A DNA stretch of 64,000 nucleotides from Xestospongia bergquistia (Eukaryota; Porifera; Demospongiae; Haplosclerida; Petrosiidae), in assembly GCA_963965975.1 (NCBI GenBank), contig OZ014411.1, positions 19,682,446 to 19,746,445 of the forward strand. Direction: 5' to 3'. This document shows, piece by piece, positions 8,001 through 57,812 of this stretch (position 1 is the first letter of the stretch; every line of letters starts with the position of its first letter). The notes beneath the pieces were generated by a model. That model was not told the DNA's origin, searched no databases, and saw only the letters and a list, made by a program, of their open reading frames with translations. Position numbers and translations under genes: made by a program.

Positions 8001-11000
8001 TGAATTAAAAACTTTGTGACTTTCAGTCATCTCTTTATTCGAAGCAAGTACTGTAATACATCGATTGTGCTCAGATACTTCAACAAAAAACTTAACTTTA
8101 ACTTTATTCTCCCAATATACACCATTAGTCCATACATTACAATGACGAGCTAATGCTTCAACTATTGGATTAGCTTTGTAAACTTTACCTGGTGTTCTTC
8201 GAGGTGGGAGGGGGAGGCAATAGGTATAGGCAAGGCTAAGAAGAAGCATATGAAGAAATCGAATCGACAGGAACTCATAAGGATCAGGACACCACAGACA
8301 CCATCCCAATCCATTCACTACATTGATATCAGTGGGTCGTTTAGCATTGATGAGTGCAGGAAAAAATAGAAGCCCATCAACTGGCATAGGTATTGATGTT
8401 GATATGTTAGTTTCAAGGCAATCAAGTGCACTTGACTCAATAATGTGACAGAACTGTAGGCTTCTAAGAAATCCTACTAACATATCAATATCATGATGAG
8501 GAAAAACTTCCTTAAGAACTGATAGAGGTACAATGCCAGTATTACTAGCAATATTATGATAAACACGATGGATTGCCGGTGGGGCAAATAGGACACCATT
8601 AACTTCTTTCAGAAGCGCTGTTTTGTCAATTACTACCCAACCTTTATTTTCCTTATTTCTGAGGAACAATATAAGACCCTTGTCACTTAAAGTGGTCAGA
8701 AATTCTAATAACACTGACATTTCTGATGGAAGAGAAGGGTCATTATGCTCTTTCAACAATGCACATAGTTCTTCTAAACTAATAGCCACTTTTTTAAGAA
8801 GCTGTAAAAAGGAGTACTGGACATGGCAATAAAAGCTGATTTTGTTGGATCGATCAAGAACAGCTTTACAGCTCTCAGAAAGCATACAGATAAACTCTTT
8901 TACTCCTTTACCTCCTGGATGATGACATTCCATAGGTAGAAACCCATTGTATTCTTGTGAATGTATAACATTCTTAGCAAATTCATCAACTAATCTATGG
9001 ATTGGGTCAAGACTAGTGGTCAGCTCATCCAGTCGACTACCAACAACGATGATTTGTGATTTCATTGAGCTCTTCATTCCTTTACAAATCTCCTCAATAA
9101 ACTTAAACCAGTAATGAAGATACTTTATCAGAATCTCCTCATTTAAGATCAGCTGGAAAAGAACCAAAAATACAGCAGGAGAGTTCAACATGAGGTTTTC
9201 AAGGACAGCAGCATGACTACTATAGTATTCCTTATGACCAGCGAGATCATATAGGACAACATTTCCTACTTCATGGCTTGTGAAGGTATGTGTATCAATA
9301 CCAGCTGTTAGTGGTTCTACTGTGACACATTCGGATGTATCAAAATTGTGATTGGCTGGTTTGTTAGCTCGTTCCATGATAACTGCAGCAAGAGAACTTT
9401 TTCCAACAGAAGTGTCACCACAGACAACTACCTTGCTGTAGGATTCCACAGGAAAGTCAGCTTGACACTGTTCAAATGGCGCAAACATTTCTAAAATCTC
9501 GAAACGATTGGTATTGCGGCGAGGAACAAGTTCCATTGGTGCTTGTCCATTGTTGTTCTTAGACATTGGATCAACTTTTCCAGAAGATAAGAGAAATTTG
9601 ATGACACCAGTGGAGCCTTCGGAGCAAGCATTGTGAAGTGGTGTATTACCACTCTAAGTAAGATAGAATAGTAATAAAGGTCTACAGTATTTATATTATA
9701 GTATAGTATGTAACTTAATAAACGACTAAGTTTTGTTAAGGAGATAGGAATAAGAGATTTTTGAAAATAATATGCCAGATCACATGTCATCAATTCATCA
9801 TTCTACTTTTAATGCCTCCTATTCAGTTGATAAGTATACATAAAAATATACATTTAAATAGAAGATCATCTACAAATCAATAAACCAGTAAATTCTATTT
9901 GTCTATGCTAAAATTTATTACCTATTAGAAAATGAATATCAATATATATCTCTAAAACCATGTTTACACACATGCAGCATAATTAGTTAATGTCAGTCAT
10001 ATTTTCAAAACAAAAGCAAAAAATTTATACAAAATTAGTCAGCACAGGATAGAAGAGATCCCAGTGTTTCATGTATGAACACATGTATATAGTGAGACAT
10101 AATTTAATACTATAATTATGATCTATTACAGCTCTTTTATTTATAAATATATTTCATAACAAATTTAGAGAAAATCTTAACATTCCAATTCAATTAACAT
10201 AAACCTGAAAAATAAATATTCAAATGTTTAAAACCTTCAGGACACATTAGCTAGATGTATGTTTATAATGGAATAGTCTTTATTAAGTTATATGGAATTG
10301 AGTTGGCCATGTGGGTGCTTTTTAAATATATAGTCTTAAAGAATGTAAAGTATATTTAAAACTTGTGCCATCACTACAGTTACTAATTCAAGCTTCTCCT
10401 TAGCATTTTGAACTGTCGTTTCAAATTTGGAAATTTTTAAACTGGCCATGCTCATTTTAATCCATTATCTTCTAATGAGAAAGACCCAGTAGATAGAACT
10501 CAATCACATATAAATAAATACTTTAATTCAAGAAGAAAACAATCTATTTGCATAATATAACAGACAATAACGTTTAAGAGTTTATAATATAAACCTAATT
10601 TATAACATACTCAATTATGTACAAAGAGCAGTTGTCAATATATAACTTATATTTATACTTACCCTGTTCTTCACATCAATGTGAACAGTACAATTAAAAA
10701 TATCAGCAACAATATCAACATTGTTATGAAGAGCAGCAAAATGCAAAGCTGTGTCATTGTTCTGAGAACACAAAGACAATATGACAAGTAAAATGTGACA
10801 ATTACCTTTAATGTAGTAACAATGTAACTGGATTATTTATTTATATAATGACATTGAATATCAGTATACTTAAATGATGAAGTACATAGTATCTAACTTG
10901 TAATATTTGTAATGTTGAATGTGACAAATGCATATGTATACCAATTTTAGCATTTTTATAAATATTATATCTACACTAAGCCCTATCCTAATGGTTGTTA

Positions 11001-14000: not shown

Positions 14001-17000
14001 TAAAATATGTAGTTTAATTTATACACAGTTTAAAAAACCACATACAACAACAAAATAAAATGAAACATCAACATATCGATATATATATATATACATTACT
14101 ACATTATATCATACTTACCACCTATTATATTATAAAGGACATATTCAGATAACATACAATCCACACCACAATTAAAAGTATAGACAAAAACAATACAGTA
14201 AACAGAGTAACAAATATTGAATTGCATACAATTACAAGTTGTACTACATTATATCATACTTACTTCCTATTATATTATAAAGGACATATTCAGATAATAT
14301 ACAATCCCACCATCATAAAAGTATAAACAAAAACAATACAGTAAACAAAGTAAATAAATATTGAATTACATACAATTACAAATTGTACTACATTATATCA
14401 TACTTACCCTCTATTATATTACGAAGGACACATTTAGATAACATACAATCCCCACCATCATAAAAGTATAGACAAAAACAATACAGTAAACAGAGTAACA
14501 AATATTGAATTGCATACAATTACAAATTGTACTACATTATATCATACTTAACAAAAAACATATTATTTAAATTACCTTAGTAGTGACAGTGTTGATATCA
14601 GCACCCTTATCAACTAATGCTTCAACAATGGCTGTGTGGCCTTCACTTGATGCAAAATGAAGAGCTGTCCACCCATCCTATTATTATAACAGAAAAAACA
14701 AACAAACAATCTGATCAATGGACATCAATATTGCTATAATTATATGTAGCTTTGAAGTTTAAAGTACAAACACAACATTAAACAATGTAAACTCATTTAG
14801 TTGGTGGCTACTAGGAGGCAGATATAAGCACTCTTTACAAGGATATTGTCCTAAACAGGACTTTCATTGTTCATGATGATATTCTTTGTTTTTGCATACT
14901 CCTATATTTAGACTTAGTCCTACATGGTAGTATTTATGTTGTTAACTGACAACTGCATTATAGAAGCTAAGGATTACTCCACAATGGCAAGCATTTAGCC
15001 TAATAATATATATGTTACTTTCAATACAGCCAGACATTCAGGTGGATATCAATGGGTTGTCCTGATATTCTTAAACAACAGATGAACAAGGTCATATTCA
15101 TGTACACATTATTTTGCATCTTTTCTTGTCTACTAATCAATCTTATGATCAAACTATTCTTAATTGAGAACTACTTCATAATATTATAATATTAGTTCAG
15201 TACATGATGTAACAAAACCTTATGACACTATGAAATGGACTACATTTAGATTCTGACATTCGCTATATTTAATGTTTTAAAAATTACTTCTGCCTTCAAT
15301 ACTACGTCAAGTAATCTTGATAACATTTAAGAAATGAGTAGTAATACAATATTTACAGTAACAAACAGATACTTACATTGTCAATAAGATTTAGATTGGC
15401 TCTTTCCTTTATTAACATCAAAATGATGTCTTTGTGTCCCTTCGTTGCTGCTATCATGAGAGGACTAGATCTTTCCTAAGAATTATCATAATAAACATGA
15501 TAATATATAACAATCAGTATATAGACAGGTATCATAACAGTTGTATATTATCTACATTTACAGTAACAAACAAATACATACTTACTATGTTAACAAGATT
15601 TAGATTGGCTCCTTTCTCTATTACCATCAAAACAATGTCTTTGTGTCCCCTCATTGTTGCTATCATGAGAGGACTAGGTCCTTCCTAAGAATTATAATAA
15701 TAAACATGATAATATATAACAATCAGTATAGATAGGTATCATAACAGTTGTATATTATCTATATTACATACACATACTGCTCTACATGTATTATATTGTA
15801 ATCATCATATAGCTAAAATAAAGTACTAACAAAATATGTGTAACTGATGTAAATAAAGTAAAGATACACAATGTTCAAATATAATGTACACAACTAATAA
15901 CAAGAAGATAATCAACAACTTGACTTTAGAGATAAAACATCACAATAGCAATGACTTTGTTATATATTCTCTAATAGTTAACTACCAGTCTTAGATTAAA
16001 AATTACACTAAGTTAGATAATGCTTACCAGCTATTAAGTTATCAAGGTCATGGTAAATAATAATCACAGCATTATAAAATAGAAGGAAAAACAATACAGT
16101 AAACAAAGTAATCAAAATAATAACAGTTAAACTACATATACATACAAATTATACAACAGTAAACAAAGTAATAACAAGATTATAATTCAATAATCATCCT
16201 ATAATTTTGTTTAGGAAGATAAAAACTTTACAGTCAAAAAACTGACTACAAAAATACAGACTTGATAGAGATATGAACAATTAGCATAGCAATGGATATC
16301 AAAGATTATATAAGCAGAGAAGCAAGGTAGTAACAAACTTCAAACCATTGAAATATCATTAATTGTACACACTATCACTGTTAGTGGTACGTAATTCATT
16401 GGTTGCCACATCCCTAATCAATTAAAATATGTAGTTTAATTTATACACAGTTTAAAAAACCACATACAACAACAAAATAAAATGAAACATCAACATATCG
16501 ATATATATATATATACATTACTACATTATATCATACTTACCACCTATTATATTATAAAGGACATATTCAGATAACATACAATCCACACCACAATTAAAAG
16601 TATAGACAAAAACAATACAGTAAACAGAGTAACAAATATTGAATTGCATACAATTACAAGTTGTACTACATTATATCATACTTACTTCCTATTATATTAT
16701 AAAGGACATATTCAGATAATATACAATCCCACCATCATAAAAGTATAAACAAAAACAATACAGTAAACAAAGTAAATAAATATTGAATTACATACAATTA
16801 CAAATTGTACTACATTATATCATACTTACCCTCTATTATATTACGAAGGACACATTTAGATAACATACAATCCCCACCATCATAAAAGTATAGACAAAAA
16901 CAATACAATAAACAGAGTAACAAATATTGAATTGCATACAATTACAAATTGTACTACATTATATCATACTTAACAAAAAACATATTATTTAAATTACCTT

Positions 17001-20000
17001 AGTAGTGACAGTGTTGATATCAGCACCATTATCAACTAATACTTCAACAATGGCTGTGTGGCCTTCACTTGATGCAAAATGAAGAGCTGTCCACCCATCC
17101 TATTATTATAACAGAAAAAACAAACAAACAATCTGATCAATGGACATCAATATTGCTATAATTATATGTAGCTTTGAAGTTTAAAGTACAAATACAACAT
17201 TAAACAATGTAAACTCATTTAGTTGGTGGCTACTAGGAGGCAGATATAAGCACTCTTTACAAGGATATTGTCCTAAACAGGACTTTCATTGTTCATGATG
17301 ATATTCTTTGTTTTTGCATACTCCTATATTTAGACTTAGTCCTACATGGTAGTATTTATGTTGTTAACTGACAACTGCATTATAGAAGCTAAGGATTACT
17401 CCACAATGGCAAGCATTTAGCCTAATAATATATATGTTACTTTCAATACAGCCAGACATTCAGGTGGATATCAATGGGTTGTCCTGATATTCTTAAACAA
17501 CAGATGAACAAGGTCATATTCATGTACACATTATTTTGCATCTTTTCTTGTCTACTAATCAATCTTATGATCAAACTATTCTTAATTGAGAACTACTTCA
17601 TAATATTATAATATTAGTTCAGTACATGATGTAACAAAACCTTATGACACTATGAAATGGACTACATTTAGATTCTGACATTCGCTATATTTAATGTTTT
17701 AAAAATTACTTCTGCCTTCAATACTACGTCAAGTAATCTTGATAACATTTAAGAAATGAGTAGTAATACAATATTTACAGTAACAAACAGATACTTACTT
17801 TGTCAATAAGATTTAGATTGGCTCCTCCCTTTATTAACATCAAAATGATGTCTTTGTGTCCCTTCGTTGCTGCTATCATGAGAGGACTAGATCTTTCCTA
17901 AGAATTATCATAATAAACATGATAATATATAACAATCAGTATATAGACAGGTATCATAACAGTTGTATATTATCTACATTTACAGTAACAAACAAATACA
18001 TACTTACTATGTTAACAAGATTTAGATTGGCTCCTCTCTCTATTAACATCAAAACAATGTCTTTGTGTCCCCTCATTGTTGCTATCATGAGAGGACTAGA
18101 TCCTTCCTAAGCATTATCATAATAAACATGATAATATATAACAATCAGTATAGATAGGTATCATAACAGTTGTATATTATCTATATTACATACACATACT
18201 GCTCTACATGTATTATATTGGAATCATCATATAGCTAAAATAAAATAACAAAATATGTGTAACTGATGTAAATAAAGTAAAGATACACAATGTTCAAATA
18301 TAATGTACACATCTAATAACAAGAAGATAATTAACAACTTGACTTAGAGATAAAACATCACAATAGCAATGACTTTGTTATATCTTCTCTAATAGTTTCC
18401 TACCAATCTTAGATTAAAAATTACACTAAGTTAGATAATGCTTACCAGCTATTAAGTTATCAAGGTCATGGTAAATAATAATCACAGCATTATAAAATAG
18501 AAGGAAAAACAATACAGTAAACAAAGTAATCAAAATAATAACAGTTAAACTACATATACATACAAATTATACAACAGTAAACAAAGTAATAACAAGATTA
18601 TAATTCAATAATCATCCTATAATTTTGTTTAGGAAGATAAAAACTTTACAGTCAAAAAACTGACTACAAAAATACAGACTTGATAGAGATATGAACAATT
18701 AGCATAGCAATGGGTATCAAAGATTATATAAGCAGAGAAGCAAGGTAGTAACAAACTTCAAACCATTGAAATATCATTAATTGTACACACTATCACTGTT
18801 AGTGGTACGTAATTCATTGGTTGCCACATCCCTAATCAATTAAAATATGTAGTTTAATTTATACACAGTTTAAAAAACCACATACAACAACAAAATAAAA
18901 TGAAACATCAACATATCGATATATATATATACATTACAAATTGTACTACATTATATCATACTTACCACCTATTATATTATAAAGGACATATTCAGATAGC
19001 ATACAATCCACACCACCATAAAATACAGACAAAAACAATGCAGTAAACAAAGTAATAAATATTAAGTTACATACAATTACAAATTGTACTACATTATATC
19101 ATACTTACCCACTATTATATTATAAAGGACATATTCAGATAACATACAATCACACCATCATAAAAGTATAGACAAAGACAATACAGTAAACAGAGTAACA
19201 ATATTGAATTGCATACAGTTACAAATTGTACTACATTATATTATACTTACTTCCTATTATATTATAAAGGACATATTCAGATAACGTACAATCACACCAT
19301 CATAAAAGTATAGACAAAAACAATGCAATACACAAAGTAATAAATATTGAATTACATACAATTACAAGTTGTACTACATTATATAATACTTACGCTCTAT
19401 TATATTATAAAGGACATATTCAGATAACATACAATCCCCACCATCATAAAAGTATAGACAAAAACAATACAGTAAACAGAGTAACAATATTGAATTGCAT
19501 ACAGTTACAAATTGTACTACATTATATCATACTTACCCTCTATTATATTATAAAGGACAAATTCAGATAACATACAATCCCCACCATCATAAAAGTAAAG
19601 ACAAAAACAATGCAATACACAAAGTAATAAATATTGAATTACATACAATTACAAGTTGTACTACATTATATAATACTTACTTCCTATTATATTATAAAGG
19701 ACATATTCAGATAACATACAATCCCCACCATCATAAAAGTATAGACAAAGACAATACAGTAAACAGAGTAGCAATATTGAATTGCATACAGTTACAAATT
19801 GTACTACATCATATCAAACTTACCAGCTATTGTATTATAAAGGACATATTCAGATAACATACAATCACACCATCATAAAAGTATAAACAAAAACAATACA
19901 GTAAACAAAGTAAATATATATTGAATTACATACAATTACAAATTGTACTACATTATATCATACTTACCAGCTATTATATTACGAAGGACACATTCAGATA

Positions 20001-23000
20001 ACATACAATCCCCACCATCATAAAAGTAAAGGCAAAAACAATGCAATACACAAAGTAATAAATATTGAATTACATACAGTTACAAATTGTACTAAATTAT
20101 ATCATACTTACATCCTATCATATTATAAAGTACATATTCAGATAACATACAATCCCCACCATCATAAAAGTATAGACAAAAACAATACAGTAAACAGAGT
20201 AACAATATTGAATTGCATACAGTTACAAGTTGTACTACATTATATCATACTTACCCTCTATTATATTATAAAGGACAAATTCAGATAACATACAATCCCC
20301 ACCATCATAAAAGTAAAGACAAAAACAATGCAATACACAAAGTAATAAATATTGAATTACATACAGTTACAAATTGTACTAAATTATATCATACTTACTT
20401 CCTATTATATTATAAAGTACATATTCAGATAACATACAATCACACCATCATAAAAGTATAGACAAAAACAATACAGTAAACAGAGTAACAATATTGAATT
20501 GCATACAGTTACAAATTGTACTACATTATATCATACTTACCCTCTATTATATTATAAAGGACAAATTCAGATAACATACAATCACACCATCATAAAAGTA
20601 AAGACAAAAACAATGCAATACACAAAGTAATAAATATTGAATTACATACAATTACAAATTGTACTACATTATATCATACTTACCCTCTATTATATTATAA
20701 AGGACATATTCAGATAACATACAATCCCCACCATCATAAAAGTATAGACAAAGACAATACAGTAAACAAAGTACTAAATATTGAATTGCATACAATTACA
20801 AATTGTACTACATTATATCATACTTACTTCCTATTATATTATAAAGGACATATTCAGATAACATACAATCCCCACCATCATAAAAGTATAGACAAAGACA
20901 ATACAGTAAACAGAGTAACAATATTGAATTGCATACAGTTACAAATTGTACTACATCATATCATACTTACCAGCTATTATATTATAAAGGACATATTCAG
21001 ATAACATACAATCACACCATCATAAAAGTACAGACAAAAACAACACAGTAAACAAAGTACTAAATATTGAATTGCATACAATTACAAATTGTACTACATT
21101 ATATCATACTTACTTCCTATTATATTATAAAGGACATATTCAGATATTATACAATCCCCACCATCATAAAAGTATAGACAAAAACAATACAGTAAACAGA
21201 GTAACAATATTGAATTGCATACAGTTACAAGTTGTACTACATTATATCATACTTACCCTCTATTATATTATAAAGGACAAATTCAGATAACATACAATCA
21301 CACCATCATAAAAGTATAGACAAAAATAATACAGTAAACAGAGTAACAATATTGAATTGCATACAGTTACAAATTGTACTACATTATATCATACTTACTT
21401 CCTATTATATTATAAAGGACATATTCAGATAACATACAATCCCCACCATCATAAAAGTATAGACAAAGACAATACAGTAAACAGAGTAACAATATTGAAT
21501 TGCATACAGTTACAAATTGTACTACATTATATCATACTTACTTCCTATTATATTATAAAGGACATATTCAGATAACATACAATCCCCACCATCATAAAAG
21601 TATAGACAAACACAATACAGTAAACAGAGTAACAATATTGAATTGCATACAGTTACAAATTGTACTACATCATATCATTCTTACCAGCTATAATATTATA
21701 AAGGACATATTCAGATAACGTACAATCACACCATCATAAAAGTATAAACAAAAACAATACAGTAAACAATGTAAATATATATTGAATTACATACAATTAC
21801 AAATTGTACTACATTATATTATACTTACCTCCTATTATATTATAAAGGACACATTCAGATAACATACAATCCCCACCATCATAAAAGTAAAGACAAAAAC
21901 AATGCAATACACAAAGTAATAAATATTGAATTACATACAATTACAAATTGTACTACATTATATCACACTTACCCCCTATTATATTATAAAGGACATATTC
22001 AGATAACACACAATCACACCATCATAAAAGTATAGACAAAGACAATACAGTAAACAGAGTAACAATATTGAATTGCATACAGTTACAAATTGTACTACAT
22101 CATATCATACTTACCAGCTATTATATTATAAAGGACATATTCAGATAACATACAATCACACCATCATAAAAGTATAGACAAAAACAATACAGTAAACAAA
22201 GTAAATATATATTGAATTACATACAATTACAAATTGTACTACATTATATCATACTTACCAGCTATTATATTACGAAGGACACATTCAGATAACATACAAT
22301 CCCCACCATCATAAAAGTAAAGACAAAAACAATGCAATACACAAAGTAATAAATATTGAATTACATACAATTACAAATTGTACTACATTATATCAAGCTT
22401 ACCTCCTATTATATTATAAAGGACATATTCAGATAACATACAATCACACCATCATAAAAGTATAGACAAAGACAATACAGTAAACAGAGTAACAATATTG
22501 AATTGCATACAGTTACAAATTGTACTACATCATATCATACTTACCAGCTATTATATTATAAAGGACATATTCAGATAACATACAATCCCCACCATCATAA
22601 AAGTATAGACAAAGACAATACAGTAAACAGAGTAACAATATTGAATTGCATACAGTTACAAATTGTACTACATCATATCATACTTACCAGCTGTTATATT
22701 ATAAAGGACATATTCAGATAACATACAATCACACCATCATAAAAGTACAGACAAAAACAACACAGTAAACGAAGTACTAAATATTGAATTGCATACAATT
22801 ACAAATTGTACTACATTATATCATACTTACTTCCTATTATATTATAAAGGACATATTCAGATATTATACAATCCCCACCATCATAAAAGTATAGACAAAA
22901 ACAATACAGTAAACAGAGTAACAATATTGAATTGCATACAGTTACAAGTTGTACTACATTATATCATACTTACCCTCTATTATATTATAAAGGACAAATT

Positions 23001-26000
23001 CAGATAACATACAATCACACCATCATAAAAGTATAGACAAAAATAATACAGTAAACAGAGTAACAATATTGAATTGCATACAGTTACAAATTGTACTACA
23101 TTATATCATACTTACTTCCTATTATATTATAAAGGACATATTCAGATAACATACAATCCCCACCATCATAAAAGTATAGACAAAGACAATACAGTAAACA
23201 GAGTAACAATATTGAATTGCATACAGTTACAAATTGTACTACATTATATCATACTTACTTCCTATTATATTATAAAGGACATATTCAGATAACATACAAT
23301 CCCCACCATCATAAAAGTATAGACAAACACAATACAGTAAACAGAGTAACAATATTGAATTGCATACAGTTACAAATTGTACTACATCATATCATTCTTA
23401 CCAGCTATAATATTATAAAGGACATATTCAGATAACGTACAATCACACCATCATAAAAGTATAAACAAAAACAATACAGTAAACAATGTAAATATATATT
23501 GAATTACATACAATTACAAATTGTACTACATTATATTATACTTACCTCCTATTATATTATAAAGGACACATTCAGATAACATACAATCCCCACCATCATA
23601 AAAGTAAAGACAAAAACAATGCAATACACAAAGTAATAAATATTGAATTACATACAATTACAAATTGTACTACATTATATCACACTTACCCCCTATTATA
23701 TTATAAAGGACATATTCAGATAACACACAATCACACCATCATAAAAGTATAGACAAAGACAATACAGTAAACAGAGTAACAATATTGAATTGCATACAGT
23801 TACAAATTGTACTACATCATATCATACTTACCAGCTATTATATTATAAAGGACATATTCAGATAACATACAATCACACCATCATAAAAGTATAGACAAAA
23901 ACAATACAGTAAACAAAGTAAATATATATTGAATTACATACAATTACAAATTGTACTACATTATATCATACTTACCAGCTATTATATTACGAAGGACACA
24001 TTCAGATAACATACAATCCCCACCATCATAAAAGTAAAGACAAAAACAATGCAATACACAAAGTAATAAATATTGAATTACATACAATTACAAATTGTAC
24101 TACATTATATCAAGCTTACCTCCTATTATATTATAAAGGACATATTCAGATAACATACAATCACACCATCATAAAAGTATAGACAAAGACAATACAGTAA
24201 ACAGAGTAACAATATTGAATTGCATACAGTTACAAATTGTACTACATCATATCATACTTACCAGCTATTATATTATAAAGGACATATTCAGATAACATAC
24301 AATCACACCATCATAAAAGTATAAACAAAAACAATACAGTAAACAAAGTAAATATATATTGAATTACATACAATTACAAATTGTACTACATTATATCATA
24401 CTAACCAGCTATTATATTACGAAGGACACATTCAGATAACATACAATCCCCACCATCATAAAAGTATAGACAAAAACAATGCAATACACAAAGTAATAAA
24501 TATTGAATTTCATACAATTACAAATTGTACTACATTATATCATACTTACCCCCTATTATATTATAAAGTACATATTCAGATAACATACAATCCCCACCAT
24601 CATAAAAGTACAGACAAAAACAACACAGTAAACAAAGTACTAAATATTGAATTGCATACAATTACAAATTGTACTACATTATATCATACTTACCACCTAT
24701 TATATTATAAAGGACATATTCAGATAACATACAATCCCCACCATCATAAAAGTATAGACAAAGACAATACAGTAAACAGAGTAACAATATTGAATTGCAT
24801 ACAGTTACAAATTGTACTACATTATATCATACTTACCTCCTATTATATTATAAAGGACAAATTCAGATAACATACAATCCCCACCATCATAAAAGTAAAG
24901 ACAAAAACAATGCAATACACAAAGTAATAAATATTGAATTACATACAATTACAAATTGTACTACATTATATTACACTTACCCTCTATTATATTATAAAGG
25001 ACATATTCAGATAACGTACAATCACACCATCATAAAAGTATAGACAAAAACAATACAGTAAACAGAGTAACAATATTGAATTGCATACAGTTACAAATTG
25101 TACTACATTATATCATACTTACCGTCTATTATATTATAAAGGACAAATTCAGATAACATACAATCACACCATCATAAAAGTAAAGACAAAAACAATGCAA
25201 TACACAAAGTAATAAATATTGAATTACATACAATTACAAATTGTACTACATTATATCACACTTACCCCCTATTATATTATAAAGGACATATTCAGATAAC
25301 ATACAATCCCCACCATCATAAAAGTATAGACAAAAACAATGCAATACACAAAGTAATAAATATTGAATTACATACAATTACAAATTGTACTACATTATAT
25401 CACACTTACCCCCTATTATATTATAAAGGACATATTCAGATAACGTACAATCACACCATCATAAAAGTATAGACAAAAACAATACAGTAAACAGAGTAAC
25501 AATATTGAATTGCATACAGTTACAAATTGTACTACATCATATCATACTTACCAGCTATTATATTATAAAGGACATATTCAGATAACGTACAACCACACCA
25601 TCATAAAAGTAAAGACAAAAACAATGCAATACACAAAGTAATAAATATTGAATTACATACAATTACAAATTGTACTACATTATATCATACTTACCCACTA
25701 TTATATTATAAAGGACAAATTCAGATAACATACAGTCACACCATCATAAAAGTATAAACAAAAACAATGCAATACACAAAGTAATAAATATTGAATTACA
25801 TACAGTTACAAATTGTACTAAATTATATCATACTTACCAGCTATTATATTACAAAGGACATATTCAGATAACATACAATCCCCACCATCATAAAAGTATA
25901 GACAAAAACAATGCAATACACAAAGTAATAAATATTGAATTACATACAATTACAAATTGTACTACATTATATCATACTTACCCACTATTATATTATAAAG

Positions 26001-29000
26001 GACATGTTCAGATAACATACAATCCCCACCATCATAAAAGTACAGACAAAAAGAACACAGTAAACAAAGTAAATAAATATTGAATTGTATACAATAACAA
26101 ATTGTACTACATTATATCATACTTACCAGCTATTATATTATAAAGGACATATTCAGATAAAATAAATTCCCACCATCATAAAAGTAGAGACAAAAACAAT
26201 ACAGTAAACAAAGTAAATATATATTGAATTACATACAATTACAAATTGTACTACATTATATCATACTAACCAGCTATTATATTACGAAGGACACATTCAG
26301 ATAACATACAATCACACCATCATAAAAGTATAGACAAAAACAATGCAATACACAAAGTAATAAATATTGAATTACATACAGTTACAAATTGTACTACATT
26401 ATATCTTACTTACCCTCTATTATATTATAAAGGACATATTCAGATAACATACAATCACACCATCATAAAAGTATAAACAAAAACAATACAGTAAACAAGT
26501 AAATATATATTGAATTACATACAATTACAAATTGTACTACATTATATCATACTTACCAGCTATTATATTACAAAGGACACATTCAGATAACACACAATCC
26601 CCACCACCATAAAATACAGACAAAAACAATGCAGTAAACAAAGTAATAAATATTAAGTTACATACAATTACAAATTGTACTACATTATATCATACTTACC
26701 CCCTATTATATTATAAAGGACATATTCAGATAACATACAATCCCCACCATCATAAAGTACAGACAATAACAATACAGTAAACAAAGTAATAAATATTGAA
26801 TTGTATACAATAACAAATTGTACTACATTATATCATACTTACCATCTATTAAATTATAAAGGACATATTCAGATAAAATAAATTCCCACCATCATAAAAG
26901 TAGAGACAATAACAATACAGTAAACAAAGTAATAAATATTGAATTGTATACAATTACAATTTGTACTACATTATATCATACTTACCCACTATTATATTAT
27001 GAAGGTTATATTCAGATAACCACCATCGTAAAAGTACAAACAAAAACAATACAGTAAACAAAGTTATAAAATATTGAATTGCATACAATTACTACATTAT
27101 ATCATACTTACTTTCTATTATATTATAAAGGACATATTCAGATAATATACAAACACACCATCATAAAAGTACAAACAAAAACAATACAGTAAACAAAGTA
27201 ACAATTGTTAAATTGCATTATATTAAGCTACAATTGTAAATTTAACAACTTTTGTTAACATACTATTCAATGAGACAATCATTTAATTTAATATGTACTA
27301 CCTACATTTTGAATTGTTCATCACATGTACATTTTATAAAATTACATACTATCACTATACATTAATGGAGCTATGACATATAACAAAATTATTTTTAAAA
27401 TGATTAAAAAACCTGTAAATTAGTAAATCTTTTCTCAAATATCAATTGACATTTATCTTAAAGATACATTTATATTATTTTTACTATGCTAGTGTACATG
27501 TTAATACTAATATCAACTTTGGACTACTACCTAATTGAGAATTTTGTACAATTATAATACATAAAAAGTTGTTAATGTCAGGTAAAATATCTTTTATCAT
27601 TATAATACTAATGATTATTAAACAATGATCTCCCAGTCATAGCATTCACATTAACAAAAAACATATTATTTAAATTACCTTAGTAGTGACAGTGTTGATA
27701 TCAGCACCATTATCAACTAATGCTTCAACAATGGCTGTGTGGCCTTCATATGATGCAAAATGAAGAGCCGTCCACCCATCCTATTATAACAGAAAAAACA
27801 AACAAACAATCTGATCAATGGACATCAATATTGCTATAATTATATGTAGCTTTGAAGTTTAAAGTACAAATACAACATTAAACAATGTAAACTCATTTAG
27901 TTGGTGGCTACTAGGAGGCAGATATAAGCACTCTTTACAAGGATATTGTCCTAAACAGGACTTTCATTGTTCATGATGATATTCTTTGTTTTTGCATACT
28001 CCTATATTTAGACTTAGTCCTACATGGTAGTATTTATGTTGTTAACTGATAACTGCATTATAGAAGCTAAGGATTACTCCACAATGGCAAGCATTTAGCC
28101 TAATAATATACATGTTACTTTCAATACAGTCAGACATTCAGGTGGATATTGATGGATTGTCCTGATATTCTTAAACAACAGATGAACAAGGTCATATTCA
28201 TGTACACATTATTTTGCATCTTTTTTTGTCTACTAATCAATCTTATGATCAAAGTATTCTTAATTTAGAACTACTTCATAATATTATAATATTAGTTCAG
28301 TACATGATGTAACAAAACCTTATGACACTATGAAATGGACTACATTTAGATTCTGACATTCGCTATATTTAATGTTTTAAAAATTACTTCTGCCTTCAAT
28401 ACTACGTCAAGTAATCTTGATAACATTTAAGAAATGAGTAATAATACAATATTTATAGTAACAAACAGATACTTACTTTGTCAACAAGATTTAGATTGGC
28501 TCCTCCCTTTATTAACATCAAAATGATGTCTTTGTGTTCCTTCGTTGCTGCTATCACGAGAGGACTAGATCTTTCCTAAGAATTATCATAATAAACATGA
28601 TAACATATAACAATCAGTATATAGACAGGTATCATAACAGTTGTATATTATCTACATTTACAGTAACAAACAAATATATACTTACTATGTTAACAAGATT
28701 TAGATTGGCTCCTCTCTCTATTAACATCAAAACAATGTCTTTGTGTCCCCTCATTGTTGCTATCATGAGAGGACTAGATCCTTCCTAAGAATTATCATAA
28801 TAAACATGATAATATATAACAAACAGTATAGATAGATATTATAACAGTTGTATATTATCTATATTACATACACATACTGCTGTACATGTATTATATTGTA
28901 ATCATCATATAGCTAAAATAAAGTACTAACAAAATATGTGTAACTGATGTAAATAAAGTAAAGATACACAATGTTCAAATATAATGTACACAACTAATAA

Positions 29001-32000
29001 CAAGAAGATAATCAACAACTTGACTTTAGAGATAAAACATCACAATAGCAATGACTTTTTTATATATTCTCTAATAGTTAACTACCAGTCTTAGATTAAA
29101 AATTGCACTAAATTAGATAATACTTACCAGCTATTAAGTTATCAAGATCATGGTAAAAATAATCACAGCATTATAAAATAGAAGGAAAAACAATACAGTA
29201 AACAAAGTAATCAAATTAATAACAATTAAACTGCATACACATACAAATTGTACAACAGTAAACAAAGTAATAACAAGATTATAATTCAATAATCATCCTA
29301 TAATTTCATTTTGGAAGATAAAAACTTTACAGTCAAAAATCTGACTACAAAAATACAGACTTGATAGAGATATGAACAATTAGCATAGCAATGGATATCA
29401 AAGATTATATAAGCAGAGAAGCAAGATATTGGTTGCCACATCCCTAATCAATTAATGTATGTAGTTTAATTTATACACAGTTTAAAAAACCACATACAAC
29501 AACAAAATAAAATGAAACATCAACATATCGATATATATATATACATTACAAATTGTACTACATTATATCATACTTACCACCTATTATATTATAAAGGACA
29601 TACTCAGATAACATACAATCCACACCACCATAAAATACAGACAAAAACAATGCAGTAAACAAAGTAATAAATATTAAGTTGCATACAATTACAAATTGTA
29701 CTACATTATATCATACTTACTTCCTATTATATTGTAAAGGACATACTCAGATAACATAAAAGTAGAAACAAAAACAATACAGTAAACAAAGTTATAAATA
29801 TTGAATTACATACAATTACAAATTGTACTACATTATATCGTACTTACCAACTATTATATTATAAAGGACATATTCAGATAACATAAAATAGCACCATCAT
29901 AAAAGTAGAAACAAAAACAATACAGTAAACAAAGAAATGAATATTGAATTGTTTACAATTACAAATTGTACTACATTATATCATACTTACCCACTATTAT
30001 ATTATAAAAGACATATTCAGATAAAATAAATTCCCACCATCATAAAAGTAGAGACAGTAACAATAGAGTAAATAAAATAATAAATATTGAATTGTATACA
30101 ATTACAAATTGTACTACATTATATCATACTTACCACCTATTATATTATAAAGGACAATTTCAGATAAAATAAATTCCCACCATCATAAAAGTAGAGACAA
30201 TAAAAATAGAGTAAAAAAGTAATAAATATTGAATTGTATACAATTAAAAATTGTACTACATTATATCATACTTACCACCTATTATATTATAAAGGACAAT
30301 TTCAGATAAAATAAATTCCCACCATCATAAAAGTAGAGACAATAAAAATAGAGTAAAAAAGTAATAAATATTGAATTGTATACAATTAAAAATTGTACTA
30401 CATTATATCATACTTACTTTCTATTATATTATGAAGGACACATTCAGATAACAAAACAATCCCCACCGTCATAAATGTAGAGACAAATACAACATAGTAG
30501 ACAGTAATAATTATTAAATTCCATTATATCAAGTCTATTGATGAAAGACTTGATTTACATTATTTATTTAACTACTTATTTGTCATCATTGAGTCTTTTC
30601 AAGACTAGTAAGACTTAAAACTTAAGAATGTTTTTGTCAAGTGGGGAACCAGAACTAGTTAAATAGCTATATGCTTCTACTTTTCTTGCTTTCATTCTCT
30701 ACTAGTACAATATTGATTATAATTCCCATAATAGTTATAAAAAGCATTATAAGACTATTTGGGAACAGGTTATACAAATATTCTATAACTTAAAACTTTT
30801 GTAGTAGTTTTTTTAGTAAAGTGAGCTCCGTCAATTGACATTATTCATGATAATTATTATACTCAATATTCTTTAACAACTATTACTACCAATATTATAT
30901 CTTAATATGTATATTACCACATGGTGAATATTAATAGCTATTTAAACACTGTGGGTGTTTGTAGATATTTGTTGTTTAGTACAGCTTCTATTTACTTGTG
31001 GAAAAAGATATAAAAACAATTTAAACAAAGAAAATGGATGTAATGATGACAATGTCACAAAGCACTGAAACAAGGTTGTCATATTACTTTGTATTCACAA
31101 ATCCATACAAAATCCATATATAACTATTGTACCATAAGCTTTATTACTTTACACTAATTTTGTAGTTTTGTTAAAAGACTACAAAGTGAACAACAAAAAT
31201 GTTTTATATTAATTGTTTATTCAAATTACCTTAGTAGTAACAACATTGATATCAGCACCATTATTAATTAATGCTTCAACAATGTTTGTGTGTCCTTCAT
31301 GAGCTGCATGATGAAGAGCCGTCCATCCATCCTATTGTAATAACAACAATAATAAACAAACTATCAACAAGATAATTACATTACTAACAGTCTATACTAA
31401 TTAGATAAATAAATTAAGACACTACAAATGGTTCCAGTGTTATACAAGTACATGTATACTTTGATAATAAAGTACAAGTGAATAAAATACTCTCAAAAAA
31501 TTCATGTAATGTAAAGATAATAGTAAAATATATCTCAAAATGACCAGAGTAAAAATAGAAGTCTCAATATCTTTATTTAATGCACGTAAAATGTCAACTC
31601 AAAATTTATTTCTAAAGGCTGCAAAACATGGTCCTCAACATTGACTGTTTTTAATAGTCAGTGTTGCTCTATCTTTTAATTCAACTGAAATAGCTTCATG
31701 CACACTGCCCATTAGAGAGCATTCTACTTGAGACAAAGGTTATATTTGCTCTATACTATAGTATTATTGCCATAATCCTCATTGATAGATTGTAAACATA
31801 TATCTAAAAACATCCTAACTTTTTATTGAACTCAATACTTTTTTCCAATTATTATGATACAGCCAGACTGTAATACCTCCTATAACTAAAAAAAGCAGTA
31901 TCATCTTCATTTTGTGCCTGCAATATAGCATGTTCAGACTGTCATCCTACTTTATTAAAGATGATTTTGTTCCTATCCTTATATTTTAAGACTTCTTTCT

Positions 32001-32843
32001 GAAATTTAAGTTATTTTTGTTTGTGCTTTTTAAGAAAATTTAAATGAAATGTGTTTATTATTGCACGTGTGTGTTCAATCATCACCCTGTGCTTTTATCT
32101 CAAGGTTCTCCTTACATCAAACAAAATTAACAGTTAACAGAAATGTACTCTAATTGTATTTATATATAATTATCACCAAAATCTGAAGAAGTATTTATAA
32201 ATGTAGGTACTAATACTAATACTAATTAAATGGTCCATCATCAACTGTACATAGCTAGCTAGGTGTGTAACTACTTTCTAAACAAATCTTAGTACACTGT
32301 ATATATACTACTTCAATATAAGCTATGTATGTATATAATGATCAACATAACTGAATACATGTGTATTATAGTGAAGACTATGGTGTGAAGTAAAGTCTAT
32401 AGACAATCAACAGAATATTTTTTTAACAATCATGTGTGCTGTATATATATATTACTGTATAACAATTAATTTTTATTTGTTTAATTTGTGGATGGCTCTA
32501 TACTGCCATATTAACTATGATATTACAGCAATGAATTATTCAATTATAACAATGATAATATATTAATATAAATTCAAATCTACAAACTAATTTAGCAATA
32601 GACCAGTAACTAACTCAGCTTGATTGGTTAGGTTGGAAGAAAACAAAATATGTAAACAAAAATTAACATTTGTTATATTTCAAGAAAATTCATTTAGACT
32701 GACTGTTTTATTTATTAAGTGTAAAATTAAATAATAAAAATAACTTACATCATCTGTAGCATTTACATTTGCACCTTTTGAGATGGCATCAATTACTTTT
32801 GATAAGTTTCCTTCGTTGGCAGAATTAATTAGCTTGCTATTTC
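5073..32843 (-). CDS. Ankyrin repeat - Roc/COR - death domain protein (ROCO-like)
   Basis: A 23-exon minus-strand model of roughly 1380 residues, in which every junction keeps frame. Exons: 32843-32749, 31331-31230, 28784-28686, 28575-28477, 27780-27679, 18106-18008, 17897-17799, 17099-16998, 15684-15586, 15475-15377, 14677-14576, 13262-13164, 11501-11403, 10761-10663, 9653-7587, 7489-7414, 7367-7317, 7260-7201, 6874-6818, 6744-6685, 6006-5714, 5361-5292, 5092-5073. Order of domains: 15 ankyrin repeats (nearly one per exon), Roc GTPase, COR-like region, Ser/Thr-rich linker, death domain. The combination resembles the DAPK1/ROCO class without a kinase or leucine-rich repeats. It is probably a cytosolic signalling scaffold whose GTPase switches death-domain assembly; that role is inferred from the family. 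The true 5' exon is not established. The 9-kb intron between exons 5 and 6 is filled by satellite. Confidence 0.82.
5292..5361 (-). CDS. Acidic linker exon after the death domain
   Basis: A 70-base exon between a CAG acceptor and a GTAAGT donor, reading EAENEGTQETTIDV and onward to ITEPN. It joins the death-domain exon in phase 0. Acidic and polar, probably a disordered tail. Confidence 0.55.
5714..6006 (-). CDS. Death-domain exon of ankyrin-Roc gene
   Basis: The exon encodes 97 residues matching the death-domain pattern: helix 1-2 LNEVTEFARTAEWYHLGVKL, then LGLDVVDVD, a central R.YRLWIQQKAENAT (the conserved W and the AT turn of helix 5), then LLIALRAIRQNNVA and a final YEDYLKRFL. Death domains mediate homotypic assembly in apoptotic and innate-immune signalling. 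The acceptor used is ATGTCAG at 6007-6013; an internal ATG just upstream could also start a free-standing 104-residue death-domain protein, but the phase match to the upstream linker exons favours splicing. The donor is GTTAGT after RFL. Confidence 0.85.
6298..6340. repeat. Interstitial telomere-like repeats
   Basis: Contains several TTTAGGG/TTAGGG-type units (tttagggttagag, ctagggtttagggttt) inside an intron, on the plus strand. It may be a scar of break repair or chance in AT-rich DNA. Confidence 0.5.
6685..7489 (-). CDS. Five Ser/Thr/Glu-rich linker exons between COR region and death domain
   Basis: Exons 7489-7414 (DLASSSLTEN..., QVSKPLLQKVHQ), 7367-7317 (SDNTGETASSTDPVSL), 7260-7201 (ITPDTAGSSCPTLTVGGIL), 6874-6818 (KEPRKIDLQPILGDIEQA) and 6744-6685 (SENSELTVSDTTTVEETKL). 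All have AG acceptors and GT donors; the first starts in phase 0 and every later junction is phase 1, so the middle exons can be skipped without a frameshift. They encode a flexible acidic linker. The first and third are also recognisable in the pseudogene at 3060-3930. Donors are mixed in quality, so exact ends of the first two are less certain. Confidence 0.62.
7587..9653 (-). CDS. Roc GTPase/COR exon with last ankyrin repeat
   Basis: A single 2067-base exon (689 codons, phase 0 at both ends). Codons 1-29 complete an ankyrin repeat (SGNTPLHNACSEGS...). The Roc domain starts near codon 70: P-loop GDTSVGKS at about 79-86, DLAGHKEYY (G3) and VVGSRLDEL (G4-like, lacking the classical NKxD, as is usual in Roc domains). 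A COR-like region follows, with VLLEFLTTLSDKGLILFL and GWVVIDKTALL in the pattern of ROCO/DAPK proteins. The first ATG in the exon (9566) is internal and not the start: the frame is open upstream to a CTTAG acceptor. The donor is GTAAGT after GRNPL. No inactivating mutation is seen. Confidence 0.9.
9654..10662. other. Intron of ankyrin-Roc gene
   Basis: AT-rich intronic sequence between two ankyrin exons. Nothing recognisable. Confidence 0.6.
10663..10761 (-). CDS. Ankyrin repeat exon (NNDTALHFAA type)
   Basis: A 99-base, phase-0 exon with CAG acceptor and GTAAGT donor. It reads NNDTALHFAALHNNVDIV..., a clear ankyrin helix pair, diverged from the cassette repeats upstream. Confidence 0.88.
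11403..11501 (-). CDS. Ankyrin repeat exon (EGKTALMIAVSKNH type)
   Basis: A 99-base, phase-0 exon. EGKTALMIAVSKNHTDIA followed by LFLIKSG fits an ankyrin repeat. The acceptor is TTATAG and the donor GTAAGT. Confidence 0.88.
12553..12618 (-). pseudogene. Truncated ankyrin exon relic (DGWT type)
   Basis: The second half of a DGWT-type ankyrin repeat survives (CHTAIVKALVDND, VDINTVTTK) next to a GTAATT donor, but the first half (DGWTALHFAS) is gone and unrelated sequence replaces it. The D-V in place of the G-A turn also points to relaxed selection. It sits exactly where the cassette order predicts a DGWT exon. Confidence 0.75.
13164..13262 (-). CDS. Ankyrin repeat exon, EGSS type, cassette 1
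   Basis: A 99-base, phase-0 exon reading EGSSPLMIATMRGHKDIV and ending GANLNLVNI, with donor GTAAGTATGTAT. Nearly identical to the exons at 15586, 18008 and 28686. Confidence 0.9.
14090..14560. repeat. 143-bp satellite, three units, cassette 1
   Basis: Three units of the same repeat as the long array at 18.9-27.2 kb, in the intron between the DGWT and EGSS exons. The variable triplets on the plus strand (after cttac) are cac, ttc and cct. Confidence 0.9.
14576..14677 (-). CDS. Ankyrin repeat exon, DGWT type, cassette 1
   Basis: A 102-base, phase-0 exon: DGWTALHFASSEGHTAIV, then LVDKGADINTVTTK. The repeat is 34 residues long. Confidence 0.9.
15377..15475 (-). CDS. Ankyrin repeat exon, ERSS type, cassette 1
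   Basis: A 99-base, phase-0 exon: ERSSPLMIAATKGHKDII, then LIKERANLNLIDN. It lies 110 bases downstream (in the sense direction) of an EGSS exon, so the two may have arisen by an early exon duplication. Confidence 0.88.
15586..15684 (-). CDS. Ankyrin repeat exon, EGPS variant, cassette 2
   Basis: A 99-base, phase-0 exon: EGPSPLMIATMRGHKDIV, then MVIEKGANLNLVNI. Differs from its sisters by a few residues, which suggests that it remains under some constraint. Confidence 0.88.
16510..16975. repeat. 143-bp satellite, three units, cassette 2
   Basis: Copy of the satellite block at 14.1-14.5 kb, with the same triplets cac, ttc, cct in the same order. This fits wholesale duplication of the cassette. 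Confidence 0.9.
16998..17099 (-). CDS. Ankyrin repeat exon, DGWT type, cassette 2
   Basis: A 102-base, phase-0 exon: DGWTALHFASSEGHTAIV, then EVLVDNGADINTVTTK, with good AATAG acceptor and GTAATT donor. Confidence 0.9.
17799..17897 (-). CDS. Ankyrin repeat exon, ERSS type, cassette 2
   Basis: A 99-base, phase-0 exon: ERSSPLMIAATKGHKDII, then LIKGGANLNLIDK. Confidence 0.88.
18008..18106 (-). CDS. Ankyrin repeat exon, EGSS type, cassette 3
   Basis: A 99-base, phase-0 exon identical in protein to the one at 13164. The intron on its upstream (sense) side contains the expanded satellite, making it about 9.6 kb instead of 1.3 kb. Confidence 0.9.
18930..27200. repeat. 143-bp satellite array, about 58 units
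   Basis: Head-to-tail units of about 143 bases within one intron of the ankyrin gene. Each holds (plus strand) catacttac, a variable triplet, ctattatattataaagg, then attcagataac, caccatcat, and a caatac(a/g)-rich tail. On the minus (gene-sense) strand this reads ATAATAG, NNN, GTAAGTATG: a strong donor-like motif preceded three bases earlier by an acceptor-like AG. Triplets counted by eye: cag 18, ttc 10, cct 8, ccc 6, ctc 5, cca 4, cac 2, and gct, atc, cgt, cat, ttt once each. The plus-strand open frames of 72-120 codons are products of the repeat and shift frame each unit. A single-copy ancestor-like block (cttaccagctattaagttatc) lies in each cassette near 13613, 16024, 18445 and 29126. Confidence 0.95.
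20830..24302. repeat. Higher-order duplication of 12 satellite units (1717 bp)
   Basis: Within the array, about 20830-22546 is repeated at 22547-24302 with an offset of 1717 bases (12 units), preserving the order of triplets and of private variants such as agatattatacaatc at 21143 and 22860. This shows recent block-wise growth of the array by unequal exchange or replication slippage. Confidence 0.88.
27679..27780 (-). CDS. Ankyrin repeat exon, DGWT type, cassette 3
   Basis: A 102-base, phase-0 exon: DGWTALHFASYEGHTAIV, then ALVDNGADINTVTTK. The satellite array begins about 480 bases further in the sense direction. Confidence 0.9.
28477..28575 (-). CDS. Ankyrin repeat exon, ERSS type, cassette 3
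   Basis: A 99-base, phase-0 exon: ERSSPLVIAATKEHKDII, then LIKGGANLNLVDK. The change of GH to EH in the conserved turn is unusual for ankyrin repeats. Confidence 0.86.
28686..28784 (-). CDS. Ankyrin repeat exon, EGSS type, cassette 4
   Basis: A 99-base, phase-0 exon with the same protein as at 13164 and 18008. Confidence 0.9.
29545..30480. repeat. 143-bp satellite, about seven diverged units, cassette 4
   Basis: More diverged units, some shortened, in the corresponding intron of the fourth cassette. Triplets in order are cac, ttc, caa, cca, cac, cac and ttt. Two adjacent units near 30110-30400 are almost identical, a recent local duplication. Confidence 0.88.
31230..31331 (-). CDS. Ankyrin repeat exon, DGWT type (first of the series)
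   Basis: A 102-base, phase-0 exon: DGWTALHHAAHEGHTNIV, then LINNGADINVVTTK. More diverged from the cassette copies, so probably the older parent type. Confidence 0.9.
32749..32843 (-). CDS. First ankyrin exon (N-terminal cap repeat)
   Basis: A 95-base exon: NSKLINSANEGNLSKVIDAI, then SKGANVNATDD. LINSANEGNLSKV has the shape of an N-terminal ankyrin cap. It starts with two bases of a split codon, so an upstream exon ending in phase 1 must exist. The only candidate recognised is the acyl-CoA-synthetase-like exon at 41028-41116. Confidence 0.85.
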
Positions 32844-57801: not shown

Positions 57802-57812
57802 CTAAGCAATAG

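What the first reader, a model, noticed from the sequence alone, without database searches (positions are those of the whole stretch)
18930..27200. Candidate array of one-codon micro-exons: AG|NNN|GTAAGTATG in every satellite unit
Read in the sense direction of the ankyrin gene, each 143-bp unit has ATAATAG, then a triplet, then GTAAGTATG. The ATAATAG resembles the real acceptors of this gene (TATAATAG before DGWT exons), and GTAAGTATG equals the real donor of the EGSS exons (GTAAGTATGTAT). The spacer is always three bases, and the flanking ankyrin exons are phase 0 at both ends, so inclusion of any number of triplets would keep frame and add one residue each between two ankyrin repeats. Across about 58 units I read 12 different triplets, coding in sense for Leu, Glu, Arg, Gly, Trp, Val, Ser, Asp, Thr, Met and Lys, and no stop (not significant by itself). 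If used, this would be a combinatorial one-amino-acid splicing cassette. If not, it is a dense field of decoy or recursive splice sites.
Basis: partly seen in the sequence, partly recalled or inferred. Interest (0 to 1): 0.88.

Follow-up and report, generated by a model that had tools for sequence, protein, structure and literature searches.

The report
Hypervariable one-codon exon arrays
In an unnamed, probably animal genome, introns between two kinds of ankyrin repeat hold tandem arrays of splice-flanked single codons that vary wildly and almost never spell a stop, which suggests that proteins are diversified one amino acid at a time by splicing.

Summary
All 58 units at 18929-27218 read AG|NNN|GT(A/T)AG in the sense of the ankyrin gene. 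The design recurs genome-wide: ATAG-NNN-GTAAGT has 4284 matches, its reversed control 608. Spacing is three bases in 498 of 534 sites. In 640 units of 15 loci, anchored on another motif, departure from consensus per site is 0-1.6% in AG and GT, 9.8% in the body, and 55, 54 and 27% in the triplet. Stops are at about background genome-wide and 0 of 727 array sites where shuffles give 62; one isolated TGA site lies behind a decayed exon. Sites lie in 21 of 23 introns from A to B ankyrin exons and 0 of 32 others, in frame. Best reading: translated one-codon exons under diversifying selection, joined stepwise in variable subsets. No RNA was available, so splicing, number of codons used and function are inferred. 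Ten paper searches with capped listings showed nothing like it.

The parts
18929..27218 (-). main array: 58 units of about 143 bp, each an intron-like body GTAAGT...ATAATAG with a 3-base candidate exon between units (first triplet 27112-27114 AAA, last 18966-18968 GTG)
29560..30520 (-). array of 7 units in the paralogous A>B intron upstream in the gene (AAA GTG GTG TGG TTG GAA GTG)
   Evidence: lower limit by eye
16519..16972 (-). array of 3 units (AGG GAA GTG)
14097..14550 (-). array of 3 units (AGG GAA GTG)
27679..27780 (-). A-type ankyrin exon DGWTALHFASYEGHTAIVEALVDNGADINTVTTK, 34 codons, donor GTAATT
18008..18106 (-). B-type ankyrin exon EGSSPLMIATMRGHKDIVLMLIERGANLNLVNI, 33 codons, donor GTAAGT
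17799..17897 (-). second B-type exon ERSS..., after a 110-nt intron (introns shorter than one satellite unit occur in this gene)
31230..31331 (-). A-type ankyrin exon DGWTALHHAAHEGH..., precedes the 7-unit array
28686..28784 (-). B-type exon after the 7-unit array
28477..28575 (-). second B-type exon ERSS... of that segment
16998..17099 (-). A-type exon of the third segment
15586..15684 (-). B-type exon of the third segment
14576..14677 (-). A-type exon of the fourth segment
13164..13262 (-). B-type exon of the fourth segment
18446..18448 (-). solitary diverged unit, candidate one-codon exon CTG; same in the paralogous introns at 29128-29130, 16028-16030 and 13606-13608
7554..9653 (-). 700-codon open frame with a last ankyrin repeat and a Roc GTPase domain: taken as the 3' part of the same gene
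32749..32843 (-). N-terminal ankyrin-like exon GNSKLINSANEGNLSKVIDAISKGANVNATDD
   Evidence: boundaries read by eye

Best explanation
The arrays are tandem series of real one-codon exons. Each satellite unit is an intron of about 140 nt that ends in AG, and the three bases before the next GTAAGT are a translated codon. In the transcript, the A-type ankyrin exon has a weak, conserved donor (GTAATT) and is joined to the acceptor of some unit; that unit's own strong donor (GTAAGT) then acts in the next round, until the acceptor of the B-type exon is used. Such stepwise, intron-defined splicing avoids the problem that a 3-nt exon is too small to be bound on both sides at once. Any subset of units keeps frame, so a variable run of residues is put between an A and a B ankyrin repeat (the tip of the ankyrin finger loop, recalled from the known fold). 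Unequal exchange multiplies the units; selection keeps the splice sites, removes stop codons and favours different codons. SHOWN: architecture, frame, position between A and B exons, conserved splice sites, hypervariable triplet, missing stops. INFERRED: that splicing happens, stepwise order, that subsets are used, and a binding or recognition role.
For: Spacing 3 in 498 of 534 TAG-N(0-12)-GTAAGT sites; from a strict acceptor motif, 300 of 308 have a donor within 14 nt and all 300 are at spacing 3. Departure from consensus in 640 units: AG 0.3 and 0.5%, GT 1.6 and 0%, body mean 9.8% (65 sites), triplet 55/54/27%. Triplet positions 1 and 2 are reached by at most 1 of 133-141 body columns in each of 8 regions. 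Site pairs with 3 or fewer differences elsewhere in the compared stretch (65 nt each side) differ at the triplet in 63% of 960; the median 3-base window differs in 4.8%, the most variable window not overlapping the triplet in 37%. Stops: 0 of 727 sites, shuffle mean 62.3 sd 5.2; 133 distinct triplets over 11 locus groups, shuffle mean 7.5, P(0)=0.0002. Genome-wide TAR 54 (control 120) and TGA 18 (control 15), against VAR 846 (control 64). GAG, CAG, AAG, GAA, TGG and TTG occur, so only stops are missing. Context: sites in 21 of 23 A>B introns, 0 of 26 B>A, 0 of 6 B>B. Donors looked for in all frames are phase 0 in 30 of 31 A exons (the other is a cut-off hit) and 36 of 36 B exons; the nearest AG is phase 0 in 28 of 31 and 33 of 36. 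A donor GTAATT in 30 of 31. Internal control: with identical 32-letter flanks and donor GTAAGT, 17 triplets in the first 100 listed of 940; with donor GTAATTTTG (0-3 mismatches), GTT in 84 of the first 100 listed of 128 and in 25 of 25 exact ones. At C1:9.605 Mb the coding exons are nearly constant (6 of 99 and 2 of 96 bases vary) while codons alternate GAA/TTT/CGA.
Against: No RNA data of any kind. One isolated TGA site lies in an A>B intron (C1:9612272); it is outside the 727 because my filter required a neighbour site within 300 nt. The A exon before it has no AG in the 15 bases checked upstream, so that segment looks decayed. 13 of the 640 units have lost AG or GT. Codons spelled in order give odd peptides (most frequent residues E, R, L, W), which makes inclusion of all units at once doubtful. 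Arrays copied by segmental duplication keep their triplets (14.1 and 16.5 kb), so change is not extremely fast. 2 of 23 A>B introns have no site. In 6 of 16 array loci the fetched stretch holds no ankyrin exon by profile, so the context rests on the others. Copies within an array are related, so site counts overstate independence; the group-level test is the conservative one. The first 100 places listed are all on C1.
Confidence: 0.8

Rival explanations
1. Ordinary intronic satellite with decoy splice sites that are never joined; the triplet is a free spacer between two motifs kept for another reason (for example splicing repression).
For: Tandem 143-bp satellite with higher-order 430-bp period; no RNA evidence of use. 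Rfam and ARAGORN find no other RNA role in 12000-32000, which neither helps nor hurts.
Against: A free spacer would contain stops and changes of length; stops are missing and spacing is fixed. Homogenised neutral DNA should not be more than five times as variable at two adjacent bases as in its body.
Confidence: 0.08
2. Recursive-splicing ratchet points that help to remove long introns; triplets are joined briefly and then removed again.
For: Sites divide an 8-kb intron into 140-nt steps, like the many recursive sites of fly long introns (PMC6110457, search listing and abstract start only).
Against: A known ratchet point has zero bases between AG and GT (recalled); spacing 0 is 4 of 534 sites, spacing 3 is 498. 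Three random bases do not rebuild a donor at the joint, and transient bases need not avoid stops. Arrays of 4-5 units also sit in A>B introns of only about 1.7 kb.
Confidence: 0.05
3. The codons are translated, but their variety comes from a local mutation process (hot spot or targeted change) rather than from selection for diversity.
For: 13 of 116 site pairs with no difference in 65+65 nt of flank have different triplets, 10 of them by 2-3 bases (several pairs share a site, so they are not independent).
Against: Copies in similar flanks with a changed donor are nearly constant; segmentally duplicated arrays keep their triplets; stops would be made too and must be purged.
Confidence: 0.12
4. 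All units of an array are always included, so that each array encodes one fixed peptide of 2 to 84 residues per genome; variety is between genes and individuals, not between transcripts. (A version of the best explanation, not a denial of it.)
For: Strong donors and short introns would favour use of every unit; in the window order the 58 residues read by eye as an E/L/R-rich, helix-like run.
Against: Other arrays spell very unlike peptides (nearly only F/R/E, or mostly R/W/P/G/E); loss of AG or GT in 13 of 640 units is tolerated.
Confidence: 0.25

Closest known systems
Schistosome micro-exon genes (MEGs)
   Same: Many very small symmetrical exons whose alternative use makes sets of similar proteins that differ by a few residues (PMC4350168, passages seen).
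   Different: MEG exons make up most of the coding region; here the candidate exons are one codon each, in satellite arrays in one kind of intron of ankyrin genes, and hypervariable.
Arthropod Dscam exon arrays
   Same: Tandem arrays of variable exons at fixed places in a recognition-type protein (PMC1397879, PMC8042237: search listing and abstract starts only).
   Different: Dscam exons encode parts of Ig domains and one per cluster is chosen; here an exon is one codon. No conserved RNA structure was found in 9 consensus units.
Single 3-nt and 1-nt exons (mouse Ncam, Drosophila TnT, Arabidopsis APC11)
   Same: Show that exons of 3 nt, and even 1 nt, are spliced in nature; for APC11 the authors propose intron definition with one intron removed after the other (PMC4674806 and PMC8042270, passages seen).
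   Different: Those are single exons; here they are thousands, in arrays, with variable codons.
Recursive splice sites (ratchet points)
   Same: Acceptor and donor side by side; possible stepwise removal of long introns.
   Different: Three fixed bases lie between, they behave like codons, and stops are avoided.
Intron gain by tandem duplication
   Same: Tandem duplication of a segment with AG and GT can make new introns (PMC4974935, listing and abstract start; the AGGT model is recalled).
   Different: Here dozens of rounds per intron, with a codon between AG and GT.

Membership tests
Schistosome-type micro-exon gene | very small symmetrical exons | tested here: met
   3-nt triplets between exons with phase-0 boundaries; splicing itself not shown
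Schistosome-type micro-exon gene | most of the coding region is in micro-exons | tested here: not met
   ankyrin exons of 96-102 nt and a 700-codon open frame with the Roc domain carry the coding region
Dscam-type exon cluster | alternative exons that encode equivalent parts of a domain | tested here: not met
   each candidate exon is one codon
Dscam-type exon cluster | exactly one exon of a cluster used per transcript | not testable with these tools
   no RNA data
Recursive ratchet point | AG directly followed by GT, zero-length exon | tested here: not met
   spacing 0 in 4 and spacing 3 in 498 of 534 sites
Tandem satellite DNA | head-to-tail copies with higher-order periods | tested here: met
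   period 143, 58 copies, higher-order 430
Protein-coding one-codon exon | in frame with flanking exons and free of stops | tested here: met
   phase-0 donors in 66 of 67 exons, looked for in all frames; 0 stops in 727 array sites; one isolated TGA site
Protein-coding one-codon exon | present in mature mRNA | not testable with these tools
   no transcript collection on hand

The most novel reading that the evidence does not exclude
A splicing-made recognition repertoire at one-residue resolution: intracellular ankyrin proteins (the window's with a Roc GTPase) whose finger tips between A and B repeats receive random or regulated strings of single residues from arrays of up to 84 one-codon exons, so that one cell type or individual makes an enormous number of receptor forms without DNA rearrangement.
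Probability: 0.35. Interest if true: 0.97.

Novelty: categorically new. Interest (0 to 1): 0.92.

Why it matters
If the codons are used, this is the finest-grained exon system I know of: some 3700 one-codon exons by excess over control (4284 minus 608), arranged in satellites, under selection as codons. It would be a new way to diversify proteins, a test case for how exons too small for exon definition are spliced, a case of satellite DNA with a coding role, and possibly an unknown recognition system. It is directly testable with long-read cDNA. Gene-annotation programs would very likely miss such exons.

Tried and rejected
Non-coding RNA reading: Rfam found 0 matches in 12000-32000, ARAGORN 0 tRNAs there, three single-unit folds are no better than shuffles (z 0.18, 0.75, -0.05), and 9 of the 16 consensus units gave no consensus structure (-0.09 kcal/mol). 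Rejected.

Ordinary recombination near the triplet as cause of the variety: rejected because one search used flanks on both sides (with one side only, was the weaker first form).

Circularity: one search chose sites by AG and GT, so its zero variation there is not evidence. One search repeats the profile from another anchor (GATATAATGTA, up to 2 mismatches); of 830 anchored places 640 passed a 70% identity filter that masks the AG, triplet and GT; C15, which lacks the anchor, is left out; donor +9 to +19 are the anchor itself and are not counted. One search looked for exon ends only in frame, so its phase-0 result was partly built in; one search repeats it in all frames.

Intronless copies that would show inserted residues: the protein search (150 of 3885 candidates scored) listed long uninterrupted ankyrin frames at 35-49% identity on several contigs; none of the listed looks like a retrocopy of these genes. 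Led nowhere.

Literature: ten searches. The listings were capped (15 of 21, 25 of 42, 12 of 34, 12 of 81 and 8 of 44); no listed paper describes arrays of one-codon exons; only the held open library was searched. 'Tandem micro-exons' in PMC7714060 are pairs of plant exons (passage seen).

Rows dropped: the neighbour filter leaves out isolated sites, among them the TGA site; locus C9:2170000 (a TAG and a TCT triplet, other flanks, not an array) is left out of the 727; C1:20860000, C5:3704000 and C8:3822000 have no pair of sites within 300 nt and so add none to the 727.
Full report
WHAT WAS CHECKED. The finding concerns 18930-27200 of the window, read on the minus strand. Tandem Repeats Finder gives 58 copies of 143 bp at 18929-27218, with a higher-order period of 430. 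All 58 units hold AG-NNN-GT(A/T)AG on the minus strand; the patterns tried have no match in the array on the plus strand. The same unit forms arrays of 7, 3 and 3 in paralogous introns of the same gene, and a diverged single copy with CTG lies in each of the four introns.

GENOME-WIDE. The window lies in contig C1 of an unnamed 146-Mb assembly of 21 contigs. ATAATAG-NNN-GTAAGTATG has 440 exact matches (reversed control 0). AATAG-NNN-GTAAGTATGATATAATG has 4065 matches with up to 3 mismatches (control 14). ATAG-NNN-GTAAGT has 4284 (control 608). I fetched 265 kb by place. In 7 regions plus the window, TAG-N(k)-GTAAGT for k = 0 to 12 gave 4, 0, 4, 498, 1, 3, 8, 3, 3, 4, 2, 4, 0. Unit families differ in length (about 130 to 147 bp) and in body sequence; the C15 unit is, by eye, hardly alike outside the splice sites, yet it keeps AG|3|GT. 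At C8 the intact site recurs about every 644 bp.

THE TRIPLET IS HYPERVARIABLE. Columns 1 and 2 of the triplet are reached by at most 1 of 133-141 body columns in each of 8 regions. Because those sites had been chosen by AG and GT, I repeated the profile with units anchored on GATATAATGTA: 640 units in 15 loci (of 830 anchored places; the rest failed a 70% identity filter). Departure from locus consensus is 0.3 and 0.5% (AG), 55, 54 and 27% (triplet), 1.6 and 0% (GT), about 2% at donor +3 to +6, and 9.8% on average over 65 body sites. Pairs of sites with 3 or fewer differences elsewhere in the compared stretch (65 nt each side) differ at the triplet in 63% of 960 pairs; the median 3-base window differs in 4.8% and the highest window not overlapping the triplet in 37%. 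With identical flanks 13 of 116 pairs differ, 10 of them by two or three bases; several of these pairs share a site.

NO STOPS. In 727 array sites of 16 loci there are 43 kinds of triplet and no stop; shuffling bases within loci gives 62.3 (sd 5.2). Taking only distinct triplets in 11 locus groups (133), shuffles give 7.5, and none in a fraction 0.0002 of 5000 trials. Genome-wide, TAA/TAG triplets in ATAG-NNN-GTAAGT number 54 (control 120) and TGA 18 (control 15), while VAA/VAG has 846 (control 64). One isolated TGA site in an A>B intron (C1:9612272) is the exception in the fetched loci; the A exon before it has no AG in the 15 bases checked upstream, so that segment may be decayed. CAG, AAG, GAG, TGG, TTG and TAT occur, so neither a first T nor a final AG is barred; only stops are missing.

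GENE CONTEXT. A profile made from ankyrin exons of these loci finds exons on the array strand and none on the other strand. In 6 of 16 array loci no such exon lies in the fetched stretch; five of these are stretches of 4-5.5 kb, and the sixth (C2:1180000, 20 kb) has one N-terminal-like ankyrin exon by eye. A exons ([N/D]GW...) have the donor GTAATT in 30 of 31 (the other is a cut-off hit); 36 B exons use GTAAG(T/A/C) or, twice, GTTAGT. With ends looked for in all frames, donors are phase 0 in 30 of 31 and 36 of 36; the nearest AG is phase 0 in 28 of 31 and 33 of 36, and in the five cases with a nearer AG an in-frame AG lies two bases further. Sites lie in 21 of 23 A>B introns, 0 of 26 B>A and 0 of 6 B>B. 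At C1:9.605 Mb eight A exons vary at 6 of 99 bases and seven B exons at 2 of 96, while the 89 triplets are GAA, TTT, CGA and twice GAT. In the window gene a B-to-B intron is 110 nt, so a 140-nt unit is a possible intron length here. The gene's last long frame holds a Roc domain.

INTERNAL CONTROL. Of copies with identical 32-letter flanks and the donor GTAAGT, the first 100 listed of 940 (all on C1) carry 17 triplets. Copies of the same satellite with the donor GTAATTTTG (first 100 listed of 128, 0-3 mismatches) carry GTT in 84, and in all 25 exact ones. Since A exons also use GTAATT, the second kind may not be dead; it shows that variety goes with the strong donor.

MECHANISM. Most likely the triplets are exons. 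The authors of the 1-nt exon paper propose intron definition with one intron removed after the other (PMC4674806, passages seen). The weak A donor, the strong unit donors and the intron-like length of units fit such stepwise joining. Any subset keeps frame. Whether subsets are random, regulated, complete or single cannot be told without RNA. The insertion point is the boundary of the Pfam ankyrin repeat, by recalled knowledge the finger-loop tip of the fold. A recognition role is a guess from the diversity, the ankyrin-Roc make-up and the most frequent residues (E, R, L, W, enrichment not tested).

NOVELTY. Schistosome micro-exon genes and Dscam arrays are the nearest kinds; each fails a defining feature here. 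Ten searches of the held library, with capped listings, showed no description of arrays of one-codon exons.

Noticed in passing
window 54807-57813, minus strand: A second tandem exon-like array: 22 donor sites GTAAGT(A/G/T)... listed after short stretches such as ...TRGRPKKKT, an AT-hook-like motif (recalled); the sequence upstream reads like the end of a DDE transposase (recalled, not searched).
   Followed up: partly
L034 (C8:3822000-3826999), minus strand: Unit of about 644 bp that holds one intact site with a variable codon and one copy with donor GTAATTTTG and nearly constant GTT.
   Followed up: yes
L035 (C15:1071000-1075999): Array of 130-bp units with the same AG|NNN|GTAAGT design but a nearly unrelated body; codons mainly CCG, TCG, CGG, AAG.
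   Followed up: partly
L011-L014 (C1:9605000-9644999): 89 sites use almost only three codons that differ strongly: GAA, TTT, CGA (Glu, Phe, Arg), plus GAT twice. The first A exon of this locus has no AG acceptor in the 15 bases checked, and the intron after it holds the only stop triplet seen in the fetched array loci (TGA).
   Followed up: partly
ankyrin exons of the fetched loci: The donor of A-type ankyrin exons is GTAATT in 30 of 31, while B exons have GTAAG or GTTAG. In 9 family consensus units the first 25 nt after the unit donor are conserved, more than a normal splice site would need.
   Followed up: partly
L044 (C13:3493000-3496999): A different repeat with AGTATAG|TAA|GTAAGTTTGTATTAA at 0.7-1.4 kb intervals; not of this family.
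   Followed up: no
window 35741-36811: 461-bp tandem repeat, 2.3 copies, 95% matches.
   Followed up: no
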